A model generated the notes under the pieces. It was not told the origin of the DNA, searched no databases, and was given only the letters and a program-made list of their open reading frames with translations. The position numbers were made by a program, and so were the translations under genes. Positions 4,480 through 47,949 of a stretch of DNA of 47,949 nt are shown here, piece by piece. The DNA comes from Wohlfahrtiimonas populi. Lineage in GTDB: Bacteria; Pseudomonadota; Gammaproteobacteria; Cardiobacteriales; Wohlfahrtiimonadaceae. Location: the NCBI RefSeq assembly GCF_002006795.1, contig NZ_MVDN01000002.1, forward strand, positions 221,267 through 269,215, read 5' to 3'. How positions within the stretch are numbered: the stretch's first letter is position 1; each line of letters starts with the position of its first letter.

Positions 4480-5489
4480 TATTGATTGCGGCTTTCCCAG
4501 CGCTTTTTAGCGAGTAAACGCATATCTACCACGATATCTGTTTCATCGACAATCTCTTCGCCAATGATCTTTTCAATAATATCTTCCAAGGTAATCACAC
4601 CTAGCCAACTACCGAATTCATCATAAATGAATGCCAAATGTTGTTTGTGATCCAATAGTTTTCTAAACGCAGTTTTCACACTAGTTGTATCTGGCAATAC
4701 TAAAGGCGGCTCAGCAAAATCTAAGACTGTTTTACCTGATTCCACCAAATCAATAAAGTCATGACGGAAAAACACACCCAATGGAGCTTCTTGATCATTG
4801 ATGATCGGATAACGAGAGAATTGGTTTTGATCAATCAACTCTTTCAATTCATCACTGCTAATATTGGGATGAATTGAAGCAGTCACAACTCTTGGTGTCA
4901 TAATAGATGTTAAATCCACTTCACCTAAATCTAAAATATTAGAAATGACTGATTGTTCCTTAGGTTCAATTTGCCCGAGTTCTTTTGCTAAAACTGATAA
5001 GGCTTTGATTTCCTGTTTAAGATTAGCATCTACTTTATTGTTGCCAATCAAACGCATGATTAAATCAGATAACCAAATAAAGGGTGCCAAAATGATGATC
5101 ATAGGATTCAAAATGACTGGCAATGTCTTTGCCAATTCTCGCCAATATTTAGCACCTAACACTTTTGGAATGATTTCAGATAACACTAAAATCAATACTG
5201 TCATCACAGCAGAGGCAATTCCTAAATAAGCATTGCCATATAGTTTTGTAACTTGTGCACCAACACCAGCTGCGCCAGCTGTATGCGCAACAGTATTCAA
5301 TGTCAAAATCGCGGCCAATGGGCGATCAATTTTATCTCTCAATTTTTTTAATTTTGGATATAAATCTGGTGCGTCCATTTTTTGCTGAGAAATAAAGCTC
5401 GGTGTTAATGATAATAACGCTGCTTCTAAAATAGAACAAATAAACGAAATTGTGATGGCAATTAAAACGATTACAAATAAAATTAACAT
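4479..5489 (-). CDS. CNNM/DUF21 membrane protein with paired CBS domains
   Basis: The N-terminal half (about residues 1-170) has the hydrophobic helices of the CNNM (DUF21) transmembrane domain, starting with an LILFVIVLIAITISF helix. Residues 190-320 form two CBS repeats (SIMTPRVV..., then FAEPPLVLPDTTS... to LGVITLEDIIEKIIGEEI). Family members are implicated in magnesium or cobalt efflux and sensing. At 336 aa it stops right after the CBS pair and lacks the C-terminal CorC_HlyC domain found in longer relatives such as CorC-type proteins. It heads the minus-strand transcript that continues into the GIY-YIG and cupin genes. Confidence 0.92.
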   Translation of the reverse strand: MLILFVIVLIAITISFICSILEAALLSLTPSFISQQKMDAPDLYPKLKKLRDKIDRPLAAILTLNTVAHTAGAAGVGAQVTKLYGNAYLGIASAVMTVLILVLSEIIPKVLGAKYWRELAKTLPVILNPMIIILAPFIWLSDLIMRLIGNNKVDANLKQEIKALSVLAKELGQIEPKEQSVISNILDLGEVDLTSIMTPRVVTASIHPNISSDELKELIDQNQFSRYPIINDQEAPLGVFFRHDFIDLVESGKTVLDFAEPPLVLPDTTSVKTAFRKLLDHKQHLAFIYDEFGSWLGVITLEDIIEKIIGEEIVDETDIVVDMRLLAKKRWESRNQ

Positions 5490-34891: not shown

Positions 34892-36142
34892 CTATACAAA
34901 AATTCTTTGTAACATTGCTTTCTTCAATTGCTGATAGTTTTCTAACTTCTTCTCATGCTGCTCAATTTGCTTATCTAATTTCTGAAAAAACTCCCCAATC
35001 TTCTGCTGTTCTTCCAATGCAGGAAAATATAAAGTTAAACTTGCAAGATCATTTAAATAAACTCCTGATTGTGCTGATGTTGAAGCTGAACGCATTAATT
35101 GCCTAGAGATACTATTTGTATCCATAGAGCATAATAAAAATGTAGGATTAATGCTGTCATTACAGCGAATAATAGCTACAGATCTTTGAAAAGCTATTTT
35201 ATTTTCAGAACCTTGATATAAAGCAGATTCTCCAATTGTTCCAACTATAGTAAAAAGTAAATCGTTAATTTTTATCGAATAATTTTTATAAATCAGTTCA
35301 TAATCTTTTTGTGAAATTTGCCTATCTTTATTTTTATCCAATACAACTTTTTTATTTTTAATATTTTTTGCACTTAACAAATATGCGCCTACACCATCAG
35401 CATGACTTCCATGCGTACCATCTTTCAATAAAACAACTATATCTTTAAGTTTTTTCTCTTCCCAATCCCCACTAAATCCATCAAAGCGCACTTTTGGCAT
35501 TTTCTCGCCTTTTTGTGGGAACATCTTTTGCAACATAGATTTTTTATAATCTTGCGCTGTTTCGAGTGCTTTTTGTTGCAACTCGATCACTTGGTCGATT
35601 TTTTGGAAAAAATCCCCAATTTTGGTTTGTTCTTTGAATTCAGGTATATCAATTGGCATTTTTTGGAAAGTTGCCATACCAATAGCAAAACGATCTGATC
35701 TTGCACCTTGATCACCATGCGTAAACATAAACTTATGCCAATTAGTTGTAGAAAAATAATGTTCTAAAAAGTCAAAGTTAATAATAGTTTGATTAGGGCG
35801 AAAAACAGAATATAACGGAGACATAACACCTGATCGTCCTAATTTATTACGTTTAATTGGTCCAACAGGAGCAAAATTTGATATTCTTGGGTTATATACA
35901 AAATCATCAGGCTGAACCACATAATAATTATCTAAATTTGCCTCATTAGAAATATCTTTATCAAAAAAATCTCTTTGACTAATAATTCCTCGCTCCGCAG
36001 AATTTGTAAATGTTTCAGTCACCTGATTATTCTTATTTTTTTCTTGTACACGAAAAGAAATTTCACTTAATTTCTTCTTTTGCCAAATATCAGAGAATCC
36101 AGCAAAGCGGAGCTTTGGGATATGGGATTCTATTTTAGCCAT
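34892..36142 (-). CDS. hsdS: Type I restriction specificity subunit
   Basis: The 416-aa subunit has two target recognition domains (about 10-175 and 225-370), each followed by a conserved helix: TKIGDFFQKIDQVIELQQKAL with KSMLQKMFPQK, and QQKIGEFFQKLDKQIEQHEKK with KAMLQRIFV. The paired helices set the spacing of the bipartite DNA site. I start it at ATG 36142, which has AAGGTG upstream and overlaps the hsdM stop by eight bases. The upstream open frame to 36229 is inside hsdM. The actual recognition sequence cannot be read from the protein. Confidence 0.95.
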   Translation of the reverse strand: MAKIESHIPKLRFAGFSDIWQKKKLSEISFRVQEKNKNNQVTETFTNSAERGIISQRDFFDKDISNEANLDNYYVVQPDDFVYNPRISNFAPVGPIKRNKLGRSGVMSPLYSVFRPNQTIINFDFLEHYFSTTNWHKFMFTHGDQGARSDRFAIGMATFQKMPIDIPEFKEQTKIGDFFQKIDQVIELQQKALETAQDYKKSMLQKMFPQKGEKMPKVRFDGFSGDWEEKKLKDIVVLLKDGTHGSHADGVGAYLLSAKNIKNKKVVLDKNKDRQISQKDYELIYKNYSIKINDLLFTIVGTIGESALYQGSENKIAFQRSVAIIRCNDSINPTFLLCSMDTNSISRQLMRSASTSAQSGVYLNDLASLTLYFPALEEQQKIGEFFQKLDKQIEQHEKKLENYQQLKKAMLQRIFV

Positions 36143-37742
36143 TGTGATCACCTTTAAGCATTGCTTTAAAGGCTTCGAGTTCATTGTTGGCTTTGTCCGT
36201 TGTACCAACCAATTCGCTAAGCATTGCAAACAACTCTTGTTCTGCTGTTTTCAACTCTGCATTAATGCTGATCATATTCGCTGAAATATCCGCCAAAGGA
36301 ATTTCAGGTTCAGCTTCAAATGTATCAACATAGCGCGGAATATTGAGGTTAAACTCATTTTCCTCAATCTCTTCAAAGCTCGCCACATAGCTATATTTAT
36401 CAATCGTTTTACGATGAATGTATGTATCCAAAATCTTCGCGATATTTTCTTCTGTCAAAATGTTCTGTGTGCGAACTTTCTCAAACTCACTAGAAGCATC
36501 AATAAAAAGCACATCTCGCTTGTCATGATTCTTTTTCAACACAATGATCGTTGTTGGGATGGATGTATTGAAGAAAATATTAGAAGGTAAACCAATCACC
36601 GCATGAATGTGCCCATTTTCCAAAAGCGTTTTACGAATTTTCTCTTCTGCACCGCCACGAAATAGAACACCATGCGGTAAAACAATCGCCATTGTGCCGT
36701 TGGATTTTAAATGATAAAAACCATGTAACAAAAATGCAAAGTCCGCTTTGGACTTCGGAGCCAACACGCCATAAGGTGAAAAACGTACATCATCCAAAAA
36801 GCCCTTTGCTGCACTCCAATCCGCTGAATATGGCGGATTCATTAAAACACCATCAAAGTTTGTTGGCTCTTCTGTTGGCCAGTCATCATCCAATGTATCC
36901 GCATTATTGAGATATTGATTCGCGATCGGCACACCATGCAACATTAAATTCATGCGCGCTAAATTATAAGTAGATGTATTGATCTCTTGCCCAAAATAGA
37001 GAACAGTATTGGGCTCTTTTGTTTCTTTTTTAATGTTCAACATTAATGATCCTGAGCCCATTGTTGGATCATACACGCTGAAGCCTTTCTGGTCTTTCTT
37101 ACCATGAATCACGATTTTGGTCATCAATTCTGCAACAGGCTGTGGTGTATAGAACTCACCTGCTTTTTTACCTGAATCTGATGCAAACTGCCCAATCATA
37201 TATTCATAAGCATCGCCCAAAATATCACCAGAATGACCTGCAAAATCTATCTCCGCCAATTCTTTCATAATGCCTGAAATGGTTTCATTCTGCTTTTGTG
37301 GCGTTGATCCAAGCTTACGAGAATAGAGATCAATATCTTGGAACAAATTCGCAAATGCATCCGATGATTGCTCTATGTTACGAAAACCCTGCTGTAAACT
37401 TTCTAATTGAAAAGATTGGCTGTGCACTTCATTGATCAAATGCGTGAATGTATATTCAGGTTCGATTACATAGGAAAACTCATCTTTTAAGGCATCTTTT
37501 AAATCTTCATGAATCTCGGGATCATGATAAGCCTTAGCATAAATATCCTGTGCATCTTTCAAAGTATCAGCTTTCTCTTCTAACTGATCCACCGCATAAT
37601 GGAGCATTTTGTCAGAGAGATATTTATAAAAAATAATACCCAATAAATAGTTTTTATATTCGTTGGCATCCATTTTAGAACGCAAAATATCTGCCGAAGC
37701 CCAAAGTGCGCTGTATAAAGATTTAGAGTTTTGCTCTGACAT
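36135..37742 (-). CDS. hsdM: Type I restriction DNA adenine methyltransferase subunit
   Basis: This is a 535-aa N6-adenine methylase. Motif I is DPTMGSGSL (225-233), and the catalytic NPPY motif is at residues 302-305. An N-terminal helical HsdM_N domain (about 8-145) precedes the core, and GEFYTPQPVAELM matches the conserved linker. It methylates the site chosen by HsdS and protects host DNA. A 9-base inverted repeat lies directly before its ATG and may affect expression. It is the first gene of the hsd locus. Confidence 0.97.
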   Translation of the reverse strand: MSEQNSKSLYSALWASADILRSKMDANEYKNYLLGIIFYKYLSDKMLHYAVDQLEEKADTLKDAQDIYAKAYHDPEIHEDLKDALKDEFSYVIEPEYTFTHLINEVHSQSFQLESLQQGFRNIEQSSDAFANLFQDIDLYSRKLGSTPQKQNETISGIMKELAEIDFAGHSGDILGDAYEYMIGQFASDSGKKAGEFYTPQPVAELMTKIVIHGKKDQKGFSVYDPTMGSGSLMLNIKKETKEPNTVLYFGQEINTSTYNLARMNLMLHGVPIANQYLNNADTLDDDWPTEEPTNFDGVLMNPPYSADWSAAKGFLDDVRFSPYGVLAPKSKADFAFLLHGFYHLKSNGTMAIVLPHGVLFRGGAEEKIRKTLLENGHIHAVIGLPSNIFFNTSIPTTIIVLKKNHDKRDVLFIDASSEFEKVRTQNILTEENIAKILDTYIHRKTIDKYSYVASFEEIEENEFNLNIPRYVDTFEAEPEIPLADISANMISINAELKTAEQELFAMLSELVGTTDKANNELEAFKAMLKGDHNG

Positions 37743-37865: not shown

Positions 37866-39398
37866 TTAAGCAATTGGCGGAGTATATGTGCCGTTCGCGA
37901 TGGAATCTTTAATGCGATCAGCTTCTCTTTGCACTTGCGACAAGAGATTTTGAACATTTTCCAAAGTTGCGATTGGGCTTAATGTTGTCATTTTAAGTGA
38001 TTGAACATCACCCACTTTTGTTACACCGATATTTGCTTCACCACGTGCAAATAGTTCATCTGCTACGTTTTGATTCAAATTATCCACGAACTCAGTAGGA
38101 TAACCGTGAGGCACAACGCGGAATAACACTGATGCAAATTGTGGTTCAACCAACAACTCTAAGCCATCTGTTGCTTTAATATAATCCGCAACATCTCGTG
38201 TTAATTTCACGCCATGATCAATCATCGAACCATACAACTCTTCACCCAATGCTTCCACTGTCATCCATAATTTCAACGCATCGAAACGGCGCGTTGTTTG
38301 TAAGGATTTAGACACAAGATTTGGCACGCCATGCTCTTCATCATAAGCTGAGTTTAAATATTCAGCCTCATAATGCATGTAACGATAGTTTGCTTCATCT
38401 TTTAGTAAGAAAGCACCACATGAAATGGTTTGGAAATAATGCTTATGGAAATCCAATGTCACAGAATCAGACAATTCCAAGCCATCCAACATTGCACGAT
38501 ATTCATTCGACAAAATCAAAGCGCCGCCCCAAGCTGCATCAATGTGCATCCAAGCACCATATTGATCAGCAATGTTTCGAATCTCTTTCATTGGGTCGAT
38601 TGCACCCGCATCTGTTGTGCCTGCTGTTGCCACAATACATGCAACAATTTTGCCATCAGCTTTGAGATCAGCCATTGTTTTAGCTAATGAGACAGTATCG
38701 ATCTGGGCATCGCTATTCACAGGAACCGTCACAACTGATTGAAAGCCCATGCCCATCATTGCTAGATTTTTCTGTACAGAAAAATGTGCATTTTCAGAAC
38801 ATACGAATTTCACATTGCGCATTGCATCTGACGGAATACCATCACGCTGAACAGACCAAGGTTGCCCGTTGTCATCTTTCCAGTTTTTAGCAATACAAGC
38901 ATCACGTGCTAACAAAATACCCATCAAGTTGGATTGTGTGCCACCTGATGTGAATACGCCAGCTTGCCCTTCTCCATAACCAACTTTTTGACGAAGCCAA
39001 TCAATTAATTGTACTTCCATCAATGATCCTGCTGGGCTTTGATCCCATGAATCCATTGATTGGTTAGTTGCGTTGATTAACACTTCAGCAATTTGGCTTG
39101 TGACCATTGTTGGACAATGTAAGTGCGCCAATGAATGAGGATGATGAACTTTTAAGCTTTTGTTTAAGAAAAGCTCCACCATACGATCCAATGACTTTTG
39201 TACGCCCATGCCTTCTTTAGAAGGTTGAAATGCGATCTCTTTGCGGAGCGCTTTAATACTGCCGCCCGTGTACATTTTTTCGTTTTGCAACCATGCAGAA
39301 ACAGCTTCCACTGCTTCGCCCATCGCTGACTGATAGTCAGCGATGGATTGTGCATCATTGCAGAACAATGCTTGACGGTGTTCTGCAAAATCTGCCAT
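37866..39398 (-). CDS. ddc: L-2,4-diaminobutyrate decarboxylase
   Basis: This is a 510-aa PLP-dependent group II decarboxylase. It has the [10 protein letters not shown] loop, the MHIDAAWGG segment with Asp287, and the cofactor lysine K319 in TLDFHKHYF. It decarboxylates 2,4-diaminobutyrate to 1,3-diaminopropane. Position immediately after dat (two-base gap) fixes the substrate assignment over other group II decarboxylases. Its product is a polyamine and may feed other nitrogen pathways. Confidence 0.95.
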
Positions 39399-39400
39399 AT

Positions 39401-40774
39401 TTAAGCTCCTCTCACCATTGTTAATGCTTCCGCGACTGCTTTCTTAAAGCGAACAATCACTTCTTCACACTCAGCTTGAGTAATGATCAATGGGCACAAT
39501 AAACGAATCACTGTACCGTTACGACCGCCTTTCTCTAATAATAATTTATTATTGAAACATGCCGTTTGGATCGCCGCTGACAATTTAGAATCGCCAGGGA
39601 ACAATCCCATATGATCTGCTTTTTTGGTTTCATCTACAATTTCAATACCGATCATCAAACCTTTACCACGCACATTGCCAATGCATGGGAATTCTTTCGC
39701 TAAATTTTTTAATTCAGCCTGTAAGAAATCGCCACGTTCTTGGGAATTCTGTGCCAAGTTCTGTTCGTTGATCATTTTGATTGTTGCTAAACCTGTTGCC
39801 ATAGCCAGTTGATTGCCACGGAAGGTTCCAGTGTGACCTGCTGGCTGCCAAGCATCAAACTTACGTTTAATACCTAAAACTGCCAAAGGTAAACTACCAC
39901 CCACCGCTTTTGACATCACGATGATGTCAGGCTCAATACCTGCATGTTCAAAAGCAAACATCTTTCCAGAACGTCCAAAACCTGCTTGAACTTCATCTAG
40001 AATTAACACAATGTCATGCTTCTGAGTGACTTCACGGATTTTCTTTAACCATTTTACAGGTGCTGTTACAACGCCGCCTTCCCCTTGAATTGCTTCAAGA
40101 ATTACAGCTGCTGGCTTTGTTACACCGCTTTCGACATCTTCAATGAAGTTTTCGAAATAATATGTCAAAGCATCAACACCAGCTTCCCCGCCTAAACCGA
40201 GCGGACAGCGATATTCATGCGGATATGGCATAAATTGCACACCTGGCATTAAACCATTGACTGCATTTTTTGCAGAAAGGTTGCCTGTTACGGATAAAGA
40301 TCCATGAGTCATACCATGGAAACCACCTGAAAAACTGATAATAGAACTACGTCCTGTATAAGTTTTTGCAAGCTTCATTGCTGCTTCTGTTCCATCTGCA
40401 CCAGACGGTCCACAAAACTGTAAGCAATACTCTTCTTTGCCTCCCGGCAATTGTTCAAGTAATGCTTCAGTAAAAGCATCCTTTAAAGGAGTTGTTAAAT
40501 CTAAAGTATGTAGTGGCAAACCACTTGTTAAAGTATCTTGGATACTTTTAATAACCACAGGATGATTATGGCCTAATGCCAATGTTCCTGCCCCAGCTAA
40601 ACAATCTAGGTACTTAGTACCTTCCACATCGGTAACCCAACAACCTAAAGCTTCCGCTATAACCAACGGCAATTTGCGTGGATAGCTACGAACATTCGAT
40701 TCCATCTGACTTTGGCGAGCCAAATAGTATTCGTTGGAAGGATTAGTGGCAGGGTTTACAGAAAAAACGCTCAT
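39401..40774 (-). CDS. dat: Diaminobutyrate-2-oxoglutarate transaminase
   Basis: This is a 457-aa class III aminotransferase. [35 protein letters not shown] and the PLP lysine K289 in [11 protein letters not shown] are all present. It converts aspartate semialdehyde plus glutamate to L-2,4-diaminobutyrate. Its neighbour ddc makes the next step. A structured leader of at least 80 bases precedes the ATG and may regulate the pair. Confidence 0.95.
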
Positions 40775-41296
40775 ATCGAATTACCATCTCTGATAGGGTT
40801 TTGAAAGAAAATAAGTCTGGTGACTTGCGGTCCTTTGACTCGGTGCTTTATATAACTTGATGGATGACGTGTTTGTTCATCACAACCAAGAAAACGGATA
40901 ATACAGACTTTTGAATGAAAAAAAATATTTTTCGGCCCTAGGGGCTCTAAAACCCATTTAAAAAATATATCGATAAAAAATAATGACTTAAATCAGCCTT
41001 TTACCTTTTCGATATCATTACTAATTTCCTACATTGTATACAAAATTATGCAAAGATTTCATGCCAAAATTTCATTATTCATCCATAGTATTTGTTATAT
41101 ATGATCATTTTTTATTCATTTTATATCTACATCATCAATCATACTTTTGGATCAATCACTACCCTACAGAAAACCTCAAAAAATCTATTCATGAATTCTA
41201 CTCATGTTTATATGAAATCAAATCATTTCTATTCATAGACCGACTTATATATAAATACATATATGTTTTATGTTAATGAATTAAGGATCACACATC
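40775..41296. other. Divergent intergenic region between dat and mesX
   Basis: There is no gene with good support in these 522 bases. On the dat side, the minus-strand leader contains an AAGTC-ACCA-GACTT hairpin (about 40812-40825) and an upstream AGTC that could pair instead. TATATAA near 40850 may be the dat -10 box. A GC-rich GCCC-CTA-GGGC hairpin lies at about 40938-40950. On the mesX side the sequence is AT-rich, with TATATA-rich dyads just before an AAGGATC ribosome site. An 80-codon frame at 41034-41276 has biased AT-rich content and no family support, so I do not call it. Confidence 0.5.
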
Positions 41297-42274
41297 ATGA
41301 GTCAGACTTTTCTCACATCTATTAAAAGTATTCCGTTTGATGAAAACTATCATCCCTCCGATAACACTCGCCTCACAACAAACTTTGCGAACTTAGCAAG
41401 AGGTGATAACAGACAAGAAAATTTACGCAATACATTGCAAATGATTAATAATCGTTTCAATTCATTGGCGACTTGGGATAATCCAAAAGGTGATCGTTAT
41501 TCTATTGAAATATCTATCATCTCCGTAGATTTGGACGTTGAAGGCAATGGCAAAAGCTTCCCAACGATAGAAGTATTGCAAACAACAATTATTGATCATA
41601 AAACTGGTGAACGCATTGCTGGCATGCCTGGTCATAGCTTTTCATCGTATGTTCGTGACTATGATTTCAGCGTATTGCTACTGGATCATAATAAAGGTCA
41701 AGAGAGTTTCAGCGTGCCTGAAAATTTTGGTAACTTACACGGCAAGCTATTTAAGTCATTCATCAACTCAGATGATTACAAGACTAGATTCAATAAAGCA
41801 CCTGCAATTTGTTTGAGTGTTGCAACCACTAGAACTTATCATAGGACAGCTAATAAACACCCAATTTTAGGCTTTGAATATCAACAAAATGACTATTCAT
41901 TAACGGATGAATATTTCAAAAAAATGGGCTTAAAAGTTCGCTATTTTATGCCTGAAAACAGCACAGCGCCTTTGGCTTTCTATTTTTCAGGTGATTTATT
42001 GAGTGATTACACAGATCTTGAGTTGATCAGCTTAATCAGCACGATGGAAACCTTCCAAAAGATCTATCGCCCTGAAATTTACAATACGAATTCAGTGGCA
42101 GGTCAATGCTACCAACCCAGCTTGAACTACCAAGATTATTCACTCACTCAAATTATCTATGATCGTGATGAACGTAATCAATTAGCAGTGAAACAAGGGA
42201 AATTTACTGAAGAGCACTTCATCAAACCCTACAAAAATATTTTGGAACAATGGGCAGCAAGTTACGCGCTTTAA
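41297..42274 (+). CDS. mesX: DUF1852 protein MesX, partner of core-MetE
   Basis: The product has 325 aa and spans the DUF1852 family: FDENYHPSDNTRLTTNFANLARG at the start, a VDLDVEGNGKSFPTIEVLQ strand, GMPGHSFSSYVRDYDFSVLL, and a long C-terminal half ending ILEQWAASYAL. Members sit beside short MetE-like proteins in Acinetobacter and relatives, where the partner (MesX) has been reported as necessary for folate-independent methionine synthesis and dependent on oxygen. No cofactor motif is evident. It is the first gene of the mesX-mesD-flavin reductase set. I cite the role from memory. Confidence 0.88.
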   Translation: MSQTFLTSIKSIPFDENYHPSDNTRLTTNFANLARGDNRQENLRNTLQMINNRFNSLATWDNPKGDRYSIEISIISVDLDVEGNGKSFPTIEVLQTTIIDHKTGERIAGMPGHSFSSYVRDYDFSVLLLDHNKGQESFSVPENFGNLHGKLFKSFINSDDYKTRFNKAPAICLSVATTRTYHRTANKHPILGFEYQQNDYSLTDEYFKKMGLKVRYFMPENSTAPLAFYFSGDLLSDYTDLELISLISTMETFQKIYRPEIYNTNSVAGQCYQPSLNYQDYSLTQIIYDRDERNQLAVKQGKFTEEHFIKPYKNILEQWAASYAL

Positions 42275-42309
42275 TTATAGTCAAATCACTTTTAAACACA
42301 TCTAACAAT

Positions 42310-42338
42310 TGATCCTCTCGCCGTAGGCGAGAAGATCA
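42310..42338. repeat. GC-rich hairpin between mesX and mesD
   Basis: TGATC-CT-CTCGCC and GGCGAG-AA-GATCA arms enclose a GTA loop. No T run follows. It resembles the arsR-arsB hairpin and may stabilise or process the message. Confidence 0.65.
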
Positions 42339-42401
42339 GAGAATATTAGCTACTATTTTATTCAATCCATTTCACTATAATTGAAACAAAGGTTATTGAT
42401 T

Positions 42402-43427
42402 ATGAAAATTTTATTACCAACATCCACTGCTGGCAGTTTACCTAAACCTTCTTGGTTAGCAGAGCCTGAAAAATTATGGTCACCTTGGAAATTAGAAGGT
42501 GAAGCATTATTAGAAGCAAAACAAGATGCTTTGCTCGTTTCTCTGCAAGATCAATTACACGCTGGCATTGATATCGTGAGCGATGGCGAACAAACTCGCC
42601 AACATTTTGTGACAACATTCATTGAACATCTCAGCGGTGTTGATTTTGAAAAGCGTGAAACAGTCCGCATTCGTAATCGCTATGATGCAAGCGTGCCAAC
42701 AGTTGTGAGCGCTGTAGAACGTCAAAAACCAGTATTTGTGGAAGATGCTAAATTCCTACGCAAACATACAGATAAACCCATCAAATGGGCTTTACCTGGC
42801 CCAATGACAATGATCGATACGCTCTATGATGCACATTACAAAAGCCGTGAAAAATTGGCGTGGGAATTTGCCAAAATCCTCAACCAAGAAGCATTGGAGC
42901 TAGAAGCTACGGGCGTTGATATCATCCAATTTGATGAACCAGCATTCAACGTATTCTTTGATGAAGTGAATGATTGGGGTGTTGCAGCACTAGAACGTGC
43001 AATCGAAGGCTTAAAATGCGAAACAGCTGTACATATTTGCTATGGTTATGGCATCAAAGCCAATACAGATTGGAAAAAAACATTGGGTTCAGAGTGGCGC
43101 CAATACGAAGAAGCATTCCCAAAATTGCAAAAATCCAACATTGATATTGTGTCACTTGAATGCCAAAATTCTCATGTACCGATGGATTTGATTGAGTTGA
43201 TTCGTGGTAAAAAAGTTATGGTGGGCGCGATTGATGTAGCAACCGATGCAATTGAAACAGCAGATGAAGTTGCAGCCACATTACGCAAAGCACTACAATT
43301 CGTGGATGCAGATAAGTTGTACCCTTCTACAAACTGTGGCATGGCACCATTATCTCGCAGCGTTGCCCGTGGTAAACTTAAGGCACTCAGCAAAGGTGCA
43401 GCAATTGTACGCCAAGAACTCATTTGA
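42402..43427 (+). CDS. mesD: Folate-independent methionine synthase, core-MetE type
   Basis: The 341-aa protein covers only the catalytic C-terminal barrel of MetE; the N-terminal barrel of full-length MetE (about 400 aa) is absent. The zinc-binding set is intact: H211 and C213 in VHICYGYG, E253 in SLECQNS, and C312 in STNCGMAP. An IQFDEPAF segment has the typical acidic loop. Core-MetE proteins of this type make methionine from homocysteine without the polyglutamyl-folate donor. The ATG at 42402 is preceded by AAAGG; an upstream TTG in the same frame lacks support. Confidence 0.9.
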   Translation: MKILLPTSTAGSLPKPSWLAEPEKLWSPWKLEGEALLEAKQDALLVSLQDQLHAGIDIVSDGEQTRQHFVTTFIEHLSGVDFEKRETVRIRNRYDASVPTVVSAVERQKPVFVEDAKFLRKHTDKPIKWALPGPMTMIDTLYDAHYKSREKLAWEFAKILNQEALELEATGVDIIQFDEPAFNVFFDEVNDWGVAALERAIEGLKCETAVHICYGYGIKANTDWKKTLGSEWRQYEEAFPKLQKSNIDIVSLECQNSHVPMDLIELIRGKKVMVGAIDVATDAIETADEVAATLRKALQFVDADKLYPSTNCGMAPLSRSVARGKLKALSKGAAIVRQELI

Positions 43428-43489
43428 TGGATTCACATGCTATAGTTAATCAGTAAGGGCAAAACTATGGATCAATTTAGGAAAAAACA

Positions 43490-43993
43490 ATGATTGAAGT
43501 AGCAGACTTTAGAAATGCGATGTCTTTGTTAACAGGCGCAGTTAATGTCGTCACAACAGCAGGAGAATCAGGTCGTCATGGCTTTACTGCATCCGCTGTA
43601 TGTAGTGTCACAGATACTCCGCCAACGTTGTTAGTCTGCATGAATAGAGCATCCAGTTCACATGATCATTTTATTGATAATAAAATTTTAACTGTGAATG
43701 TATTAGGCTCTCATCATCAAGAAATTTCTAAAGTTTTTTCTTCTAAAATGTCTCCAGAAGAACGTTTTGAACATGGCAATTGGATTGAATTAGAAACAGG
43801 TGCACCTGTATTAGAAGATGCCCTTGTGAGCTTCGATTGTGAAATCGACCAAATTCAAGAGATTGGCACACATACCATTTTTATTTGTCGCATTGTGGCG
43901 ATTCAACAAAGCCAACATAACCAAGGCTTAGTCTATTTTAATCGTGCTTATCATCATGTGGGTGAGTCAAAAATTTCTCTTCCTGAATGTTAG
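43490..43993 (+). CDS. Flavin reductase-like protein of the mesXD cluster
   Basis: The 167-aa product matches the flavin reductase / HpaC-like domain: FRNAMSLLTGAVNVVTTAG, HGFTASAVCSVTDTPPTLLVCMN, and the final YFNRAYHHVG. These proteins reduce FMN or FAD with NAD(P)H for partner oxygenases. It follows mesD by 62 bp. Its presence, together with the oxygen requirement reported for MesD/MesX systems, suggests that reduced flavin feeds MesX or a related step, but the partner is inferred. Confidence 0.88.
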   Translation: MIEVADFRNAMSLLTGAVNVVTTAGESGRHGFTASAVCSVTDTPPTLLVCMNRASSSHDHFIDNKILTVNVLGSHHQEISKVFSSKMSPEERFEHGNWIELETGAPVLEDALVSFDCEIDQIQEIGTHTIFICRIVAIQQSQHNQGLVYFNRAYHHVGESKISLPEC

Positions 43994-44030
43994 TCTAACC
44001 TTAAGATTACAATGCTTTCTATAGAAACAA

Positions 44031-44067
44031 AAAACCGCTAATCGTTAATCATTAGCGGTTTTCTTTA
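44031..44067. terminator. Bidirectional terminator after the flavin reductase gene
   Basis: Twelve-base arms AAAACCGCTAAT and ATTAGCGGTTTT enclose an 8-base loop, with A/T runs outside. It serves the mesXD cluster and, on the minus strand, the amidase gene. Confidence 0.88.
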
Positions 44068-44089
44068 TTTTAATGGATTAATGAATACA

Positions 44090-45517
44090 TTAATTCAAAT
44101 TGGGCACTTGCCTTGTATTACCCAATGCTGTTTCTACTTCTTTTGCGACTGATAATAAAACATGATCATTAGCAGTATGAGCGATCAATTGAATGGACAA
44201 TGGCATGTGTTCACTATCAAATCCTGAAGGCAATGTGATTGCTGGTGCATCAATGAAGTTAGCAGGTCGTAAAAATGCCCCCAACCCCGTATGCTTAACA
44301 TCTTCAAAATCTAATGTTTGAGCAGCTTGATCCATAGCTGGCAATAGTAATACTGCATTTTCTGGCAATTCTTTTCTAAAGGCTTCTTGATATGCCTTAC
44401 GATCTTCTAAAGTTTTCTCATAGTCAGCAATAGAGATATTTTTACCATTCAAAATACGATTTCTAACTGTTAACCATACATCCGCAGTTGGATCTTCTAC
44501 TAAATCACCATAATGCTGATAAGCTTCGTAAGCTAAAACTACGGAGTTATCATCACCAATTTGCTTGAAGAAACCTAAGTCACTCGGTTGCCAATCGATG
44601 ATTTCATAACCCTGCTCTTTTAAACCTCCAATTGTCTCATGCCAATACACAGAATAATCAGCATTTACAGAATATGGCCATGCGGCTTCATTTAAGCAAT
44701 AGAGTTTCTTTGAAGCAGTCGATTCATCATTTGAATCAGCCATAAAATTACGCTGAGCTTCTAAGCCAAATGTAGACAATGTTGCATCATCATTTAAATC
44801 AGGGCCAGACAATAATCTTGTCATGATTTCTGAATCTTCAACTGTACGTGACACAATGCCAACTACATCCAATGTTGGTGATAATGGCATCGCATCCGCG
44901 CGTGAAATCATGCCGCTGCTCGGCTTAAATCCAATAGTGTAAGTATGTGCTGCTGGTGCACGAACTGAACCACCTGTATCACCGCCCAAAGAAATTGGGC
45001 ATAAACCTAATGCTAATGCAGCACCAGCACCTGCAGAAGAACCTCCTGGAGATCTCAATGTTTTTAAATCCCAAGGATTATGCGCTGTTCCCACTGTAGG
45101 GTTCTGCCCTGCCAAACCAAATGCAAATTCAGTCATGGATGTTTTACCTAAAATCACCATGCCCAAAGCAATCAATTTATCAACGACAGCACTATTTTTT
45201 TCACTCACACAATTTAAACGAGCATTAGAACCATAATGTGCAACAGAACCTTTATAATCAAAGTGTTCTTTGATGCTCACAGGCACACCATGAAATGGGC
45301 TCAAAATAATCCCTGCCTTTCTTAACCTGTCTGCATTTTCAGCCAACGCTAACGCTTGCTCTTCAAATACTGATGTATAAATACAATACTTGCCATTGTA
45401 TTCAGCAATCCTATTTAAAAAATGTCGTGTAATCTCAACAGAAGATAATTCCTGTTGTGCCATTTTATTTGCCAATTCCTGTGCACTTAAATAATGCATA
45501 GCAATCCAGTCATTCAT
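44090..45517 (-). CDS. Amidase-signature family hydrolase
   Basis: This is a 475-aa cytosolic enzyme with the amidase catalytic triad: K83 in VSIKEHFD, cis-Ser S160 in SPGGSSAGAG, and nucleophile S184 in GGDTGGSVRAPA. It hydrolyses an amide to acid and ammonia. It is not GatA-like by context, because no gatB or gatC is present. It starts 21 bp after an MHS-type transporter and probably acts on the compound imported by it. The natural substrate is unknown. Confidence 0.92.
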   Translation of the reverse strand: MNDWIAMHYLSAQELANKMAQQELSSVEITRHFLNRIAEYNGKYCIYTSVFEEQALALAENADRLRKAGIILSPFHGVPVSIKEHFDYKGSVAHYGSNARLNCVSEKNSAVVDKLIALGMVILGKTSMTEFAFGLAGQNPTVGTAHNPWDLKTLRSPGGSSAGAGAALALGLCPISLGGDTGGSVRAPAAHTYTIGFKPSSGMISRADAMPLSPTLDVVGIVSRTVEDSEIMTRLLSGPDLNDDATLSTFGLEAQRNFMADSNDESTASKKLYCLNEAAWPYSVNADYSVYWHETIGGLKEQGYEIIDWQPSDLGFFKQIGDDNSVVLAYEAYQHYGDLVEDPTADVWLTVRNRILNGKNISIADYEKTLEDRKAYQEAFRKELPENAVLLLPAMDQAAQTLDFEDVKHTGLGAFLRPANFIDAPAITLPSGFDSEHMPLSIQLIAHTANDHVLLSVAKEVETALGNTRQVPNLN

Positions 45518-45538
45518 TTTATATCCCTACAATTAATA

Positions 45539-46816
45539 TTACTTTAATTCACTACCTGCCGTTTCAGGCATTTTGATAAATGTGATTAACGAAATCAATG
45601 CACTCAAAAGCACTACGAAATAAAAGATTTTTTCCATTTGAATGCTCTGTAACCAAGTCAATAAGTAAGGCGTTGTTCCACCTAAAATGGCAACCATTAA
45701 GTTATAAGGGGTACCAATACCAACTGCTCGGATATTTGCTGGGAATTGCTCAGCCATGATTGCTGGTGCAATGGATGAATACATTGCATACAATGTTAAA
45801 CCGAATAGCTCAATTAATAATAATGTTGTAAATGATGCATTTACAAACTGAATCACAAAATAGAAGAATAATAAGTTGCCGAGTGCAAATGTGATCAATT
45901 GTGGTTTACGACCAATTTTATCGGATAAATAACCAAATAAAGGCTGCATAAACATAAAGGCAACAATTGCAATTGTGTTTGCACCGAATGCAATCTTAGG
46001 ATCAGCACCACCTTGGCGAATTGCGTAAGTTGGTAAATAAGCCATGAATACATAGAACGCATAAGTTGATAATGTAGAGAAACCAATGATTCTCAATGTT
46101 TCTACAGGATAATCACGCAAAAGAGTTCTCAATGGTTGTTTTACCGCTTTTTGAGTATGAGCTTCGCTTTCATCATCTGCTTTAATGCTGTAACGCAACC
46201 AAATGCCAATCACGCCACCTAAAGCGCCAATGATGAATGGAATTCTCCATCCCCAAGCATTCATATCAGCTTTTGATAAAGTTGTTGTCAAAACCCAACC
46301 TAAACCAGATGCTAAAAGGATACCCATTGCCGCACTCATGAATAAGAAGCTTGAGTAGAAGCCACGCTGTTTTATTGGTGCCATTTCAGTTAAATATGTA
46401 GATGCAGATGCATATTCACCACCCAAGGACAAACCTTGAATCAATCTTGCTACCACTAACAATAAAGGTGCTGCAATGCCGATGCTCTCATATGTTGGTG
46501 TGATACCAATGATCAATGAACCTGCTGCCATCATCACAATGGTCAATGACAATGCATTTCTACGGCCAAATCTATCTGAAAATAAACCGATCAAAAAGCC
46601 ACCCAATGGTCGCATGAAAAAACCAACAGCAAAAATTGCAAATGTTGCTAATAATGCAGCCGTTTCATTTGTGGATGGGAAAAACTGGTTGCTGAAAAAA
46701 ATGGCAAATGCTGCGTAAATTGTCCAGTCAAACCATTCAACTAAGTTACCAACACTACCTATTAATATTTTTTTGTATTTAATAGGTTCAGCTGTTGTTG
46801 TGTTACTTGCTATCAT
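45539..46816 (-). CDS. MFS transporter, metabolite:H+ symporter (MHS) type
   Basis: This is a 425-aa carrier with 12 hydrophobic segments. The GSVGNLVEWFDWTIYAAFAIFFSNQFFP N-terminus, the GLFSDRFGRRNAL loop and RLIQGLSLGGEYASASTYL are hallmarks of the MHS group, which includes alpha-ketoglutarate and proline/betaine permeases. AGGAGAG is four bases before the ATG. It is the first gene of the transporter-amidase pair and faces the tandem Lrp regulator across a 30-bp dyad. Confidence 0.92.
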   Translation of the reverse strand: MIASNTTTAEPIKYKKILIGSVGNLVEWFDWTIYAAFAIFFSNQFFPSTNETAALLATFAIFAVGFFMRPLGGFLIGLFSDRFGRRNALSLTIVMMAAGSLIIGITPTYESIGIAAPLLLVVARLIQGLSLGGEYASASTYLTEMAPIKQRGFYSSFLFMSAAMGILLASGLGWVLTTTLSKADMNAWGWRIPFIIGALGGVIGIWLRYSIKADDESEAHTQKAVKQPLRTLLRDYPVETLRIIGFSTLSTYAFYVFMAYLPTYAIRQGGADPKIAFGANTIAIVAFMFMQPLFGYLSDKIGRKPQLITFALGNLLFFYFVIQFVNASFTTLLLIELFGLTLYAMYSSIAPAIMAEQFPANIRAVGIGTPYNLMVAILGGTTPYLLTWLQSIQMEKIFYFVVLLSALISLITFIKMPETAGSELK

Positions 46817-46837
46817 ATATCTCTCCTCGATTCTTTA

Positions 46838-46867
46838 TTATGATACATTCACGACAAATTATCATAA
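46838..46867. promoter_or_regulatory. Operator candidate between MHS transporter and Lrp regulator
   Basis: Perfect 8-base arms TTATGATA (46838-46845) and TATCATAA (46860-46867) have a 14-base spacer, giving a centre-to-centre distance of 22 bp (two turns). The arms extend imperfectly to 12 bases. It lies in the 93-bp divergent gap. Confidence 0.65.
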
Positions 46868-46909
46868 AAAAGACATTATTCAATTCTTTTTTTCAAAAAA
46901 AGGACATTC

Positions 46910-47824
46910 ATGTATAAAAAAATTGATGATACAGACAAAGAATGCATCGATTATTTAGTTAAACAGCCATTATCGACATGGAAAGAAATCGCAGAACATC
47001 TGGATGTCACCGAAAGAACGATCGCCAGACGAATGCAACGCCTTTTAAATGAAAATATCTTTAGAGTCTTAGGAGAAGTTGATCCTTTAATTTTAAAAAA
47101 AGGTGGCGTTCACCATATTTGGATCAAATGCCAACTGGGGTTGATCAACGAAGTTTCCACCAGTTTAAAGAACATGCCAAACTGCAAATTATTACTGAGT
47201 TTAACAGGCTCACATGATTTGATGGCTGAATTTCATTTTGATAGTTATGAAGAAATGTTGGAATATACCTTTAACATTATTCCTGCCATCCATGGCATTC
47301 ATTCATACGAAAACAATGCTGTGCTTAGATATTTCAAACGCGCCAGCAATAGATATTATCATCAAGAAAAAACATTGAGTGAAGATGAAACGAACTTAAT
47401 TGAACTCTTACTCAAAAATGGTCGCTCAACCATTACTGAGTTGTCATCATCCTTAAACCTCAGCACACCAACCATTAAAGGGATGATTGATCACCTTGTT
47501 GAAGAGAAATTTTTGAGTTATAAAATTGACATTGAACCAAATTTGATTGGTTATGCGACTGAAGCCATCATTTGCTTAGAAATCACGCCAAATGAAATGC
47601 TAGAAGTTATTAATGTGTTACAAGAGTCACCGTTCACTCGCTGTTTATTAGGCACTAGCGGTAAATCCCAAGTGTTTTGGCATGTGGTGCATTATGACAA
47701 CCATTCTTTGTGGAACCTTGTAACAGAATTACTGAAAGATTTTAAAAATATTAACCACATGGATTTAAACATTGCGATTCATGCTTATAAACGCAGCGGC
47801 CATATCCGACCTGATCTTGCATAA
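46910..47824 (+). CDS. Lrp/AsnC-family regulator with two fused modules
   Basis: The 304-aa protein contains two copies of the Lrp layout. The first winged helix is at about residues 6-53 (DKECIDYLVKQPLSTWKEIAEHL to TIARRMQRLL), with a RAM-like sensor domain at about 65-150. A second helix-turn-helix (ETNLIELLLKNGRSTITELSSSL) starts near 158, followed by another sensor domain to the end. Normal Lrp proteins are about 150 aa. Fusion yields a pseudo-dimer within one chain. Position suggests control of the divergent transporter-amidase pair. Confidence 0.9.
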   Translation: MYKKIDDTDKECIDYLVKQPLSTWKEIAEHLDVTERTIARRMQRLLNENIFRVLGEVDPLILKKGGVHHIWIKCQLGLINEVSTSLKNMPNCKLLLSLTGSHDLMAEFHFDSYEEMLEYTFNIIPAIHGIHSYENNAVLRYFKRASNRYYHQEKTLSEDETNLIELLLKNGRSTITELSSSLNLSTPTIKGMIDHLVEEKFLSYKIDIEPNLIGYATEAIICLEITPNEMLEVINVLQESPFTRCLLGTSGKSQVFWHVVHYDNHSLWNLVTELLKDFKNINHMDLNIAIHAYKRSGHIRPDLA

Positions 47825-47825
47825 T

Positions 47826-47852
47826 AAAAAAGCCCCAAAAGGGGCTTTTTTT
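47826..47852. terminator. Bidirectional terminator after the Lrp gene
   Basis: AAAAAGCCCC and GGGGCTTTTT arms surround an AAAA loop, with T residues on both strands. It ends the Lrp gene and the minus-strand gene at the window edge. Confidence 0.9.
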
Positions 47853-47859
47853 ATTCTAT

Positions 47860-47949
47860 TTAGAAATCTGAATGTTGCTTTGGCAATTGCTTAATTTGCT
47901 GCTGCAACCAACCTTTGAACAATACGTTTTTATTGTATTTATGCAAATC
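47860..47949 (-). CDS. C-terminal fragment of a gene, LysR-like tail
   Basis: Twenty-nine codons are open on the minus strand from the window edge to TAA at 47860-47862. The tail contains LFKGWLQQQIKQLP, which resembles the C-terminal helix of LysR-type regulators (aromatic-x-x-WL pattern). The terminator before it on the minus strand supports a real gene end. The family assignment is tentative. Confidence 0.5.
   Translation of the reverse strand, partial: DLHKYNKNVLFKGWLQQQIKQLPKQHSDF

What the first reader, a model, noticed from the sequence alone, without database searches (positions are those of the whole stretch)
41297..43993. Folate-independent methionine synthase cluster: DUF1852 (MesX), core-MetE (MesD) and flavin reductase
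A 341-aa MetE catalytic barrel, with zinc ligands H211, C213, E253 and C312 intact but no N-terminal folate-domain half, sits between DUF1852 and a flavin reductase on the same strand. Core-MetE/MesX pairs are reported to make methionine without 5-methyl-THF and to need oxygen. To my knowledge the methyl donor is unknown. The linked flavin reductase suggests that an oxygenase-like reaction with reduced flavin liberates a methyl group, with MesX as the candidate oxygenase. This is the best candidate here for biochemistry that is not fully described.
Basis: partly seen in the sequence, partly recalled or inferred. Interest (0 to 1): 0.78.

Follow-up and report, generated by a model that had tools for sequence, protein, structure and literature searches.

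The report
Oxygen-dependent, folate-free methionine synthase operon
This is a copy of a known three-gene set that lets aerobic bacteria make the amino acid methionine without vitamin B12 or methyl-folate; where its methyl group comes from is still unknown, and comparison of many genomes strengthens the published guess that reduced flavin is involved.

Summary
In detail: mesX (DUF1852, 41297-42274), mesD (341-aa core MetE, 42402-43427) and a flavin reductase (43490-43993) lie on one strand, and the zinc and homocysteine residues of MesD are intact. The system, its oxygen need, the linked reductase and the flavin-oxygenase idea were published by Price et al. 2021 (PMC7857596). What I add: (1) The reductase is not conserved. 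Of 138 loci with mesD, 29 have a PF01613 reductase, 8 an unrelated MsuE-type one, 101 neither. But all found are same-strand, at one place per type, and fall into four groups (three of PF01613, 20-30% identical to each other, and one of PF03358). I read this as convergent evidence that MesX uses reduced flavin. (2) The MesX model has no confident fold match. (3) MetR-box-like sites precede mesX here and in most relatives, which fits published B12 repression in Acinetobacter. The host has MetH and MetF but no MetE. Best reading: MesX, with O2 and flavin reduced by any reductase, makes an activated methyl group that MesD passes to homocysteine. The donor is unknown; use of methylene-THF in the manner of ThyX is a testable rival.

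The parts
41191..41205 (+). MetR-box-like site ATGAA-N5-CTCAT (1 mismatch to ATGAA-N5-TTCAT)
   Evidence: at nearly the same place a same-genus relative has a perfect box (L185, -107); consensus from PMC4239095
41212..41226 (+). second MetR-box-like site ATGAA-N5-ATCAT (1 mismatch)
   Evidence: region aligned with Acinetobacter promoters
41250..41256 (+). TATAAAT, likely -10 element, seen at the aligned place in Acinetobacter mesX promoters
   Evidence: alignment; position; not listed by the consensus scan
41297..42274 (+). mesX (DUF1852/PF08908), 325 aa
   Evidence: 75% identical to A. baylyi mesX in L005
42310..42338 (+). GC-rich hairpin in the 127-nt mesX-mesD gap, no T run; single copy in the genome
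   Evidence: z -3.5 for the whole gap; one search does not list it as a terminator
42402..43427 (+). mesD (core MetE), 341 aa, Zn ligands H211 C213 E253 C312; Hcy residues S12 E63 D178
   Evidence: 89% identical to A. baylyi mesD in L005
43490..43993 (+). flavin reductase (PF01613, RutF/HpaC-like), 167 aa
   Evidence: 79% identical to the A. baylyi gene at the same place (L005)
44029..44064 (.). two-way terminator-like hairpin after the reductase

Best explanation
The three genes form an operon for B12- and folate-independent methionine synthesis. MesD holds homocysteine as a zinc thiolate and accepts a methyl group. MesX makes or carries that methyl group in a reaction that uses O2, reduced flavin (FMNH2 most likely) and a common metabolite. 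The linked reductase regenerates reduced flavin from NAD(P)H; other cellular flavin reductases can stand in for it, which is why many genomes lack a linked one. A MetR-like regulator sensing homocysteine switches the operon on when B12-fed MetH cannot keep up. Shown here: genes, residues, linkage pattern, operator-like sites, absence of MetE. Shown in print (other strains): need for MesX and O2, no need for MetF or B12. Inferred: one transcript; MesX binds reduced flavin; the reductase serves it; MetR-like control in this genome. Unknown: the methyl donor.
For: Gene identity and residues. mesD beside mesX in 138 of 139 loci; the one miss is a contig end, L040. 37 of 138 loci carry a linked flavin reductase: 29 PF01613-type, all same strand directly after mesD; 8 MsuE-type, all same strand directly before mesX; no further hit at E 1e-4 in the flanks read, about 5-6 kb a side where the contig allows. 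The Acidovorax MsuE-type gene passes the MsuE cut-off, 251.8 against 212.5, and is PF03358, not PF01613. Of the PF01613 ones, 12 (window included) were compared: three groups 20-30% identical to each other. MetR-like box, up to 1 mismatch, in the 300 bases before mesX: 60 of 67 non-Acinetobacter loci (dinucleotide shuffles mean 2.3, max 8); 8 of 14 in the set of 13 Acinetobacter loci plus the window (mean 0.7, max 3); 10 of 11 in the host family (mononucleotide shuffles mean 0.45, max 3). Own genome: MetH, MetF, no MetE N-domain, one MetR-like LysR at E 1e-15. Published: E. coli complementation needing MesX, MesD and O2; in A. baumannii B12 lowers mesX by log2 -8.3 and a flavin reductase two locus tags away by -2.5 (passages; no mesD value in what I saw).
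Against: No linked reductase found in 101 of 138 loci, including 38 of 44 in the most even sample, and mesXD without a linked reductase works in E. coli, so it is not essential in cis. The MesX model matches no solved flavoenzyme or oxygenase fold with confidence and MesX has no solved relative by sequence. No flavin-binding motif was shown. The own MetR-like protein is under the MetR equivalog cut-off, 197.7 against 382; Leyn et al. report MetR absent from Moraxellaceae. 6 of 14 Acinetobacter-plus-window promoters have no box within 1 mismatch.
Confidence: 0.65

Rival explanations
1. MesX is an O2-dependent enzyme without flavin (a non-haem iron or cofactor-free oxygenase, in the manner of methylphosphonate synthase, which, as I recall, makes a methyl group by C-C cleavage with O2); the reductase only supplies electrons to the metal or serves something else.
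For: Oxygen need (published). Two His (H148, H188), one Cys (C172) and many acidic residues are invariant in 81 MesX, so a metal site is possible. No known flavin fold found. Most loci lack a linked reductase.
Against: Four reductase groups at fixed operon positions; MsuE and HpaC/RutF types are partners of flavin monooxygenases elsewhere (family names).
Confidence: 0.2
2. MesX works like ThyX or TrmFO: it takes the methylene of 5,10-methylene-THF with reduced flavin and hands MesD a methyl group, so MetF is bypassed but folate is still the source.
For: Would explain the reduced flavin link, the dispensability of MetF (published) and the presence of a donor in E. coli. Mechanisms of ThyX and TrmFO are recalled, not looked up.
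Against: Does not explain the oxygen need; Price et al. argue against methylene-THF because it would have to be reduced.
Confidence: 0.08
3. The reductase is a chance or convenience neighbour with no role in methionine synthesis.
For: Not found in most loci; variable even within the host family, 4 of 12 readable loci.
Against: Fixed position and strand in 37 of 37 loci that have one, replacement by an unrelated family, co-repression with mesX by B12 in A. baumannii (passage).
Confidence: 0.05
4. MesD is an ordinary MetE remnant that uses methyl-THF or methylcobalamin on its own.
For: It is homologous to the MetE catalytic half.
Against: No folate domain; published complementation shows mesD alone fails and MetF is not needed.
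Confidence: 0.02

Closest known systems
MesD/MesX of Acinetobacter baylyi and Sphingomonas koreensis (Price et al. 2021, PMC7857596)
   Same: Same three genes in the same order as A. baylyi; against L005 (A. baylyi) MesX 75%, MesD 89%, reductase 79% identical; same key residues.
   Different: Only an ortholog in another genome; 127-nt mesX-mesD gap with a hairpin where the A. baylyi ORFs are 17 nt apart.
PF08908-metE2 as member of the MetR regulon (Leyn et al. 2014, PMC4239095)
   Same: MetR-like boxes before mesX here.
   Different: That paper finds no MetR in Moraxellaceae; here box-like sites are seen in Acinetobacter promoters too, and the host genome (not Moraxellaceae, as far as I can tell) has a MetR-like LysR under the family cut-off.
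Two-component flavin monooxygenases (HpaBC, RutAF, SsuDE/MsuDE)
   Same: Linked NAD(P)H:flavin reductase of the HpaC/RutF or MsuE type; O2 dependence in print.
   Different: No match of MesX to their oxygenase parts by sequence or by confident fold match.
MetE and the other core synthases MesA, MesB, MesC
   Same: Zinc barrel that activates homocysteine.
   Different: No folate half; MesX beside it, and no B12-binding gene among the families seen in the window flank searched.

Membership tests
MesD (core methionine synthase) | MetE catalytic domain without the N-terminal folate half | tested here: met
   PF01717 only, 341 aa
MesD (core methionine synthase) | Zinc ligands H, C, E, C and homocysteine residues S, E, D | tested here: met
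   H211 C213 E253 C312, S12 E63 D178; kept in 138 or 139 of 139 rows
MesD (core methionine synthase) | Close similarity to ACIAD3523 and adjacency to DUF1852 | tested here: met
   89% to the A. baylyi gene, adjacent mesX; PRK09121 697 bits
MesD (core methionine synthase) | Activity needs MesX and O2, not MetF or B12 | not testable with these tools
   Published for other strains
MesX (PF08908) | Full-length match above the curated cut-off | tested here: met
   589.8 bits against 25, positions 1-323 of 323
Two-component flavin-dependent monooxygenase | Dedicated flavin reductase encoded with the oxygenase | tested here: met
   PF01613 gene 62 nt after mesD, no terminator-like site listed in that gap; but linked in only 37 of 138 loci
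Two-component flavin-dependent monooxygenase | Oxygenase with a known flavin-monooxygenase fold | tested here: inconclusive
   Model pLDDT 84.6; no PDB match at E 0.001 or better, best VIA Z 3.4 over 116 residues, rmsd 3.7
Two-component flavin-dependent monooxygenase | Consumes FMNH2 or FADH2 and O2 | not testable with these tools
   needs purified protein
MetR regulon | ATGAA-N5-TTCAT operator before the gene | tested here: inconclusive
   Two sites near the promoter, each with 1 mismatch, no perfect one in the window; strongly enriched over shuffles in relatives
MetR regulon | MetR ortholog in the genome | tested here: inconclusive
   One LysR, best family MetR 197.7 bits, under the cut-off of 382

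The most novel reading that the evidence does not exclude
MesX is a reduced-flavin, O2-using enzyme of a fold without a solved relative that cuts an activated methyl group out of a central metabolite and gives it to MesD: a further aerobic route to the methionine methyl group, beside methyl-folate and methyl donors such as betaine. Different flavin reductases, including one from an unrelated family, were recruited to it about four times.
Probability: 0.4. Interest if true: 0.85.

Novelty: already known. Interest (0 to 1): 0.42.

Why it matters
The source of the methyl group in this widespread pathway has been open since at least 2021. If MesX builds a methyl group with flavin and oxygen, it is new one-carbon chemistry and a B12-free, folate-free escape route that also bears on growth under nitrous oxide (strains with MesD homologs reported insensitive, passages of PMC13059711). 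The reductase pattern found here tells experimenters which missing part to add to an in vitro assay.

Tried and rejected
Riboswitch as cause of B12 repression: no Rfam family reached its gathering score in 38000-47949; all 10 listed hits are under their cut-offs with E 0.63 or more. Rejected for known families.

Possible acetyltransferase (GNAT) fold for MesX: the order of strands and helices in the model and a few weak rows (9iy3 Z 2.9, 6edz Z 2.5, 5zbb Z 2.4, 6gtr Z 2.2; their kinship to GNAT is recalled) suggested it. A model of residues 1-237 alone was poor (pLDDT 74.2, pTM 0.57); its 50 listed rows were MHC-platform chains, Z up to 3.9, and Foldseek gave no match at 0.001. Dropped; neither a known nor a new fold is shown. 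The profile of 81 MesX found only 2grk at E 1, taken as chance.

Other reductase families beside the reductase-free loci: of 79 nearest same-strand neighbours I gave 76 to the scan (left out: L115 and L127 at 4561-4878, which lie opposite a LysR gene, and L129 2-4600). No flavin reductase family is among those matched by two or more of the 76; single cases cannot be excluded because 25 of 86 families are shown.

Reductase queries were the window gene, three plasmid-borne PF01613 genes and one MsuE at E 1e-4. A very distant reductase would be missed, so 101 without is an upper bound. For L128 both mesX and the MsuE-type gene are in pieces. The table kept the best two hits per class and locus; only L128 reached two.

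Literature: searches, 106 of the open-licence library showed, in listings and in the passages I opened, no paper that identifies the MesX substrate or describes the MsuE-type link; not every listed paper was opened, and subscription papers and preprints are not held. The Phaeocystis 'MetE-fusion' paper (PMC10861871) is not held; whether its fused part is DUF1852 I do not know.

Full report
What is there. The window holds mesX (41297-42274), mesD (42402-43427) and a flavin reductase gene (43490-43993) on the + strand. Pfam names them MesX (PF08908, 589.8 bits), Meth_synt_2 without Meth_synt_1, and Flavin_Reduct. MesD passes the cut-off of its NCBIfam model with 697 against 392 bits. A two-way terminator-like hairpin at 44029-44064 follows the reductase; none is listed between mesD and the reductase, and one weak terminator-like site lies inside mesD (42584-42601). 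That the three genes share one transcript is inferred.

The host. The genome (2.78 Mb, 74 contigs, 99.5% complete) has one mesX, a MetH that passes both MetH models, MetF and no MetE folate half; betaine-type and other core synthases were not searched for. Its family holds 18 genomes in 4 genera in the collection, too few for Moraxellaceae as I recall its size. Among the 80 named loci the closest are nevertheless Acinetobacter (MesX 77%, MesD 91%, reductase 84%); within its own family G699 is closer (MesX 97%). MesX is in 13 of the 18 family genomes and in 44 of 398 genomes drawn across the phylum.

What is already known. Price et al. 2021 (passages, and sections 11 and 13) defined MesD and MesX. 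They showed that mesX plus mesD rescue E. coli metE and metF mutants only with oxygen, noted that a putative flavin reductase (ACIAD3522) is often near, and proposed, as an illustration, a flavin/O2 reaction on pyruvate. Pfam and some plasmid annotations already say 'putative oxygenase MesX'. I found no later paper that settles the donor.

Reductase survey. I took the 80 loci nearest to the window MesX, 15 plasmid loci and 44 genome loci (43, one; fetched): 139 in all. One (L040) ends before mesD. Of the other 138, 29 have a PF01613 reductase, 8 an MsuE-like one, 101 neither. All 29 lie on the mesX strand directly after mesD; all 8 lie on the mesX strand directly before mesX; no further hit lies elsewhere in the flanks. 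By sample: 23 of 80, 8 of 15, 6 of 44. The first sample is biased to close relatives (21 of its 23 are Acinetobacter or Psychrobacter), the second was picked for diversity, the third is nearest to an even draw. I compared 12 PF01613 proteins (window and 11 of the 29). They form three groups: the window with Acinetobacter, Psychrobacter, Shinella and G074 (37-80%); Croceibacterium with Paracoccus (63%); Cupriavidus, Burkholderia and G316 (78-86%). Between groups identity is 20-30%. The MsuE-like gene of Acidovorax is PF03358 and passes the MsuE cut-off; the other seven are 66-87% identical to it. In the host family, of 13 genomes with mesX, 4 have the close reductase next to it (window included), 8 do not, and G699 ends inside mesD; several of the 8 have a 38-44% relative of the reductase elsewhere in the genome. 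I read this as repeated, separate attachment of a flavin reductase to mesXD, with use of unlinked reductases elsewhere. I built no tree, so 'about four' rests on sequence groups.

MesX itself. 81 MesX align with 76% mean column identity; stretch 251-260 shows no change in any. A predicted model reaches pLDDT 84.6; its weakest blocks are 21-30 and 261-290, the latter bordering the unchanged stretch, as would fit a site ordered by a ligand or by MesD (inference). Foldseek gives no PDB or viral match at E 0.001 or better; VIA gives Z 3.4 at most (116 residues, rmsd 3.7). No solved relative by sequence. This neither proves a new fold nor excludes a known one.

Regulation. Leyn et al. 2014 (passages) list PF08908-metE2 among well-conserved MetR targets with the box ATGAA-N5-TTCAT, and report MetR absent from Moraxellaceae. 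The window has two one-mismatch boxes at 41191-41205 and 41212-41226, with TATAAAT at 41250; a third one-mismatch match at 41048-41062 lies far upstream. Up to one mismatch in 300 bases: 60 of 67 non-Acinetobacter loci against a shuffle mean of 2.3 (max 8), 18 of them perfect; 8 of 14 Acinetobacter-plus-window against 0.7 (max 3); 10 of 11 host-family loci against 0.45 (max 3, plain shuffles; L189 left out because its mesX start is missing). Six of the 14 do not reach one mismatch, though by eye each shows TGAA-N5-YTCA at the aligned place. LysR genes near mesX have MetR as best family in 4 of 5 tested, under the cut-off; the own genome has one such gene about 99 kb away. In A. baumannii, B12 lowers mesX by log2 -8.3 and the reductase by -2.5 (passages of PMC12892962), as expected if homocysteine, drained by B12-fed MetH, is the signal (inference; that paper's text does not mention MetR, LysR or homocysteine).

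Mechanism and confidence. Best reading: MesX with reduced flavin and O2 makes a methyl group for MesD, any suitable flavin reductase serving (0.65). Rivals: a metal or cofactor-free oxygenase (0.2), methylene-folate with reduced flavin (0.08), chance neighbour (0.05), ordinary MetE remnant (0.02). The methyl donor cannot be settled from sequence.

Noticed in passing
L120, L151, L168, L174: A divergent MesD (58-59% to the window) next to MesX of 63-66%; two of the four (L120, L174) have the MsuE-type reductase. Possibly a second MesD subclass.
   Followed up: partly
25 of the 80 loci; L121 7715-8515; L166: A TauE/SafE transporter gene lies in the flank, often beside the cassette: same strand after the reductase in Psychrobacter and A. 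schindleri, opposite strand in Vibrio and Pseudoalteromonas.
   Followed up: partly
window 42275-42401: 127-nt mesX-mesD gap with a strong single-copy hairpin; in 12 of 13 Acinetobacter loci the ORFs are 15-36 nt apart (L002 overlaps, by ORF start choice). It could set the MesX:MesD ratio.
   Followed up: partly
PLSDB records; H61, H62: mesX in 209 plasmid records (34 conjugative, 40 mobilizable; some records are of chromosome size) and in two records labelled Acinetobacter phage of 134 and 139 kb.
   Followed up: no
G082:C1:2175963-2176446: A second, broken MesX (two pieces, one internal TGA) besides the intact one in the same genome.
   Followed up: no
L025: mesD ORF truncated beside an intact mesX in Bowmanella yangjiangensis.
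   Followed up: no
window 37866-40774: Class III aminotransferase and PLP decarboxylase pair on the - strand, divergent from mesX; resembles the diaminobutyrate/diaminopropane genes (recalled); families.
   Followed up: no
window 34892-37742: Two overlapping - strand ORFs that look like type I restriction HsdS and HsdM (read from the translation, not searched).
   Followed up: no
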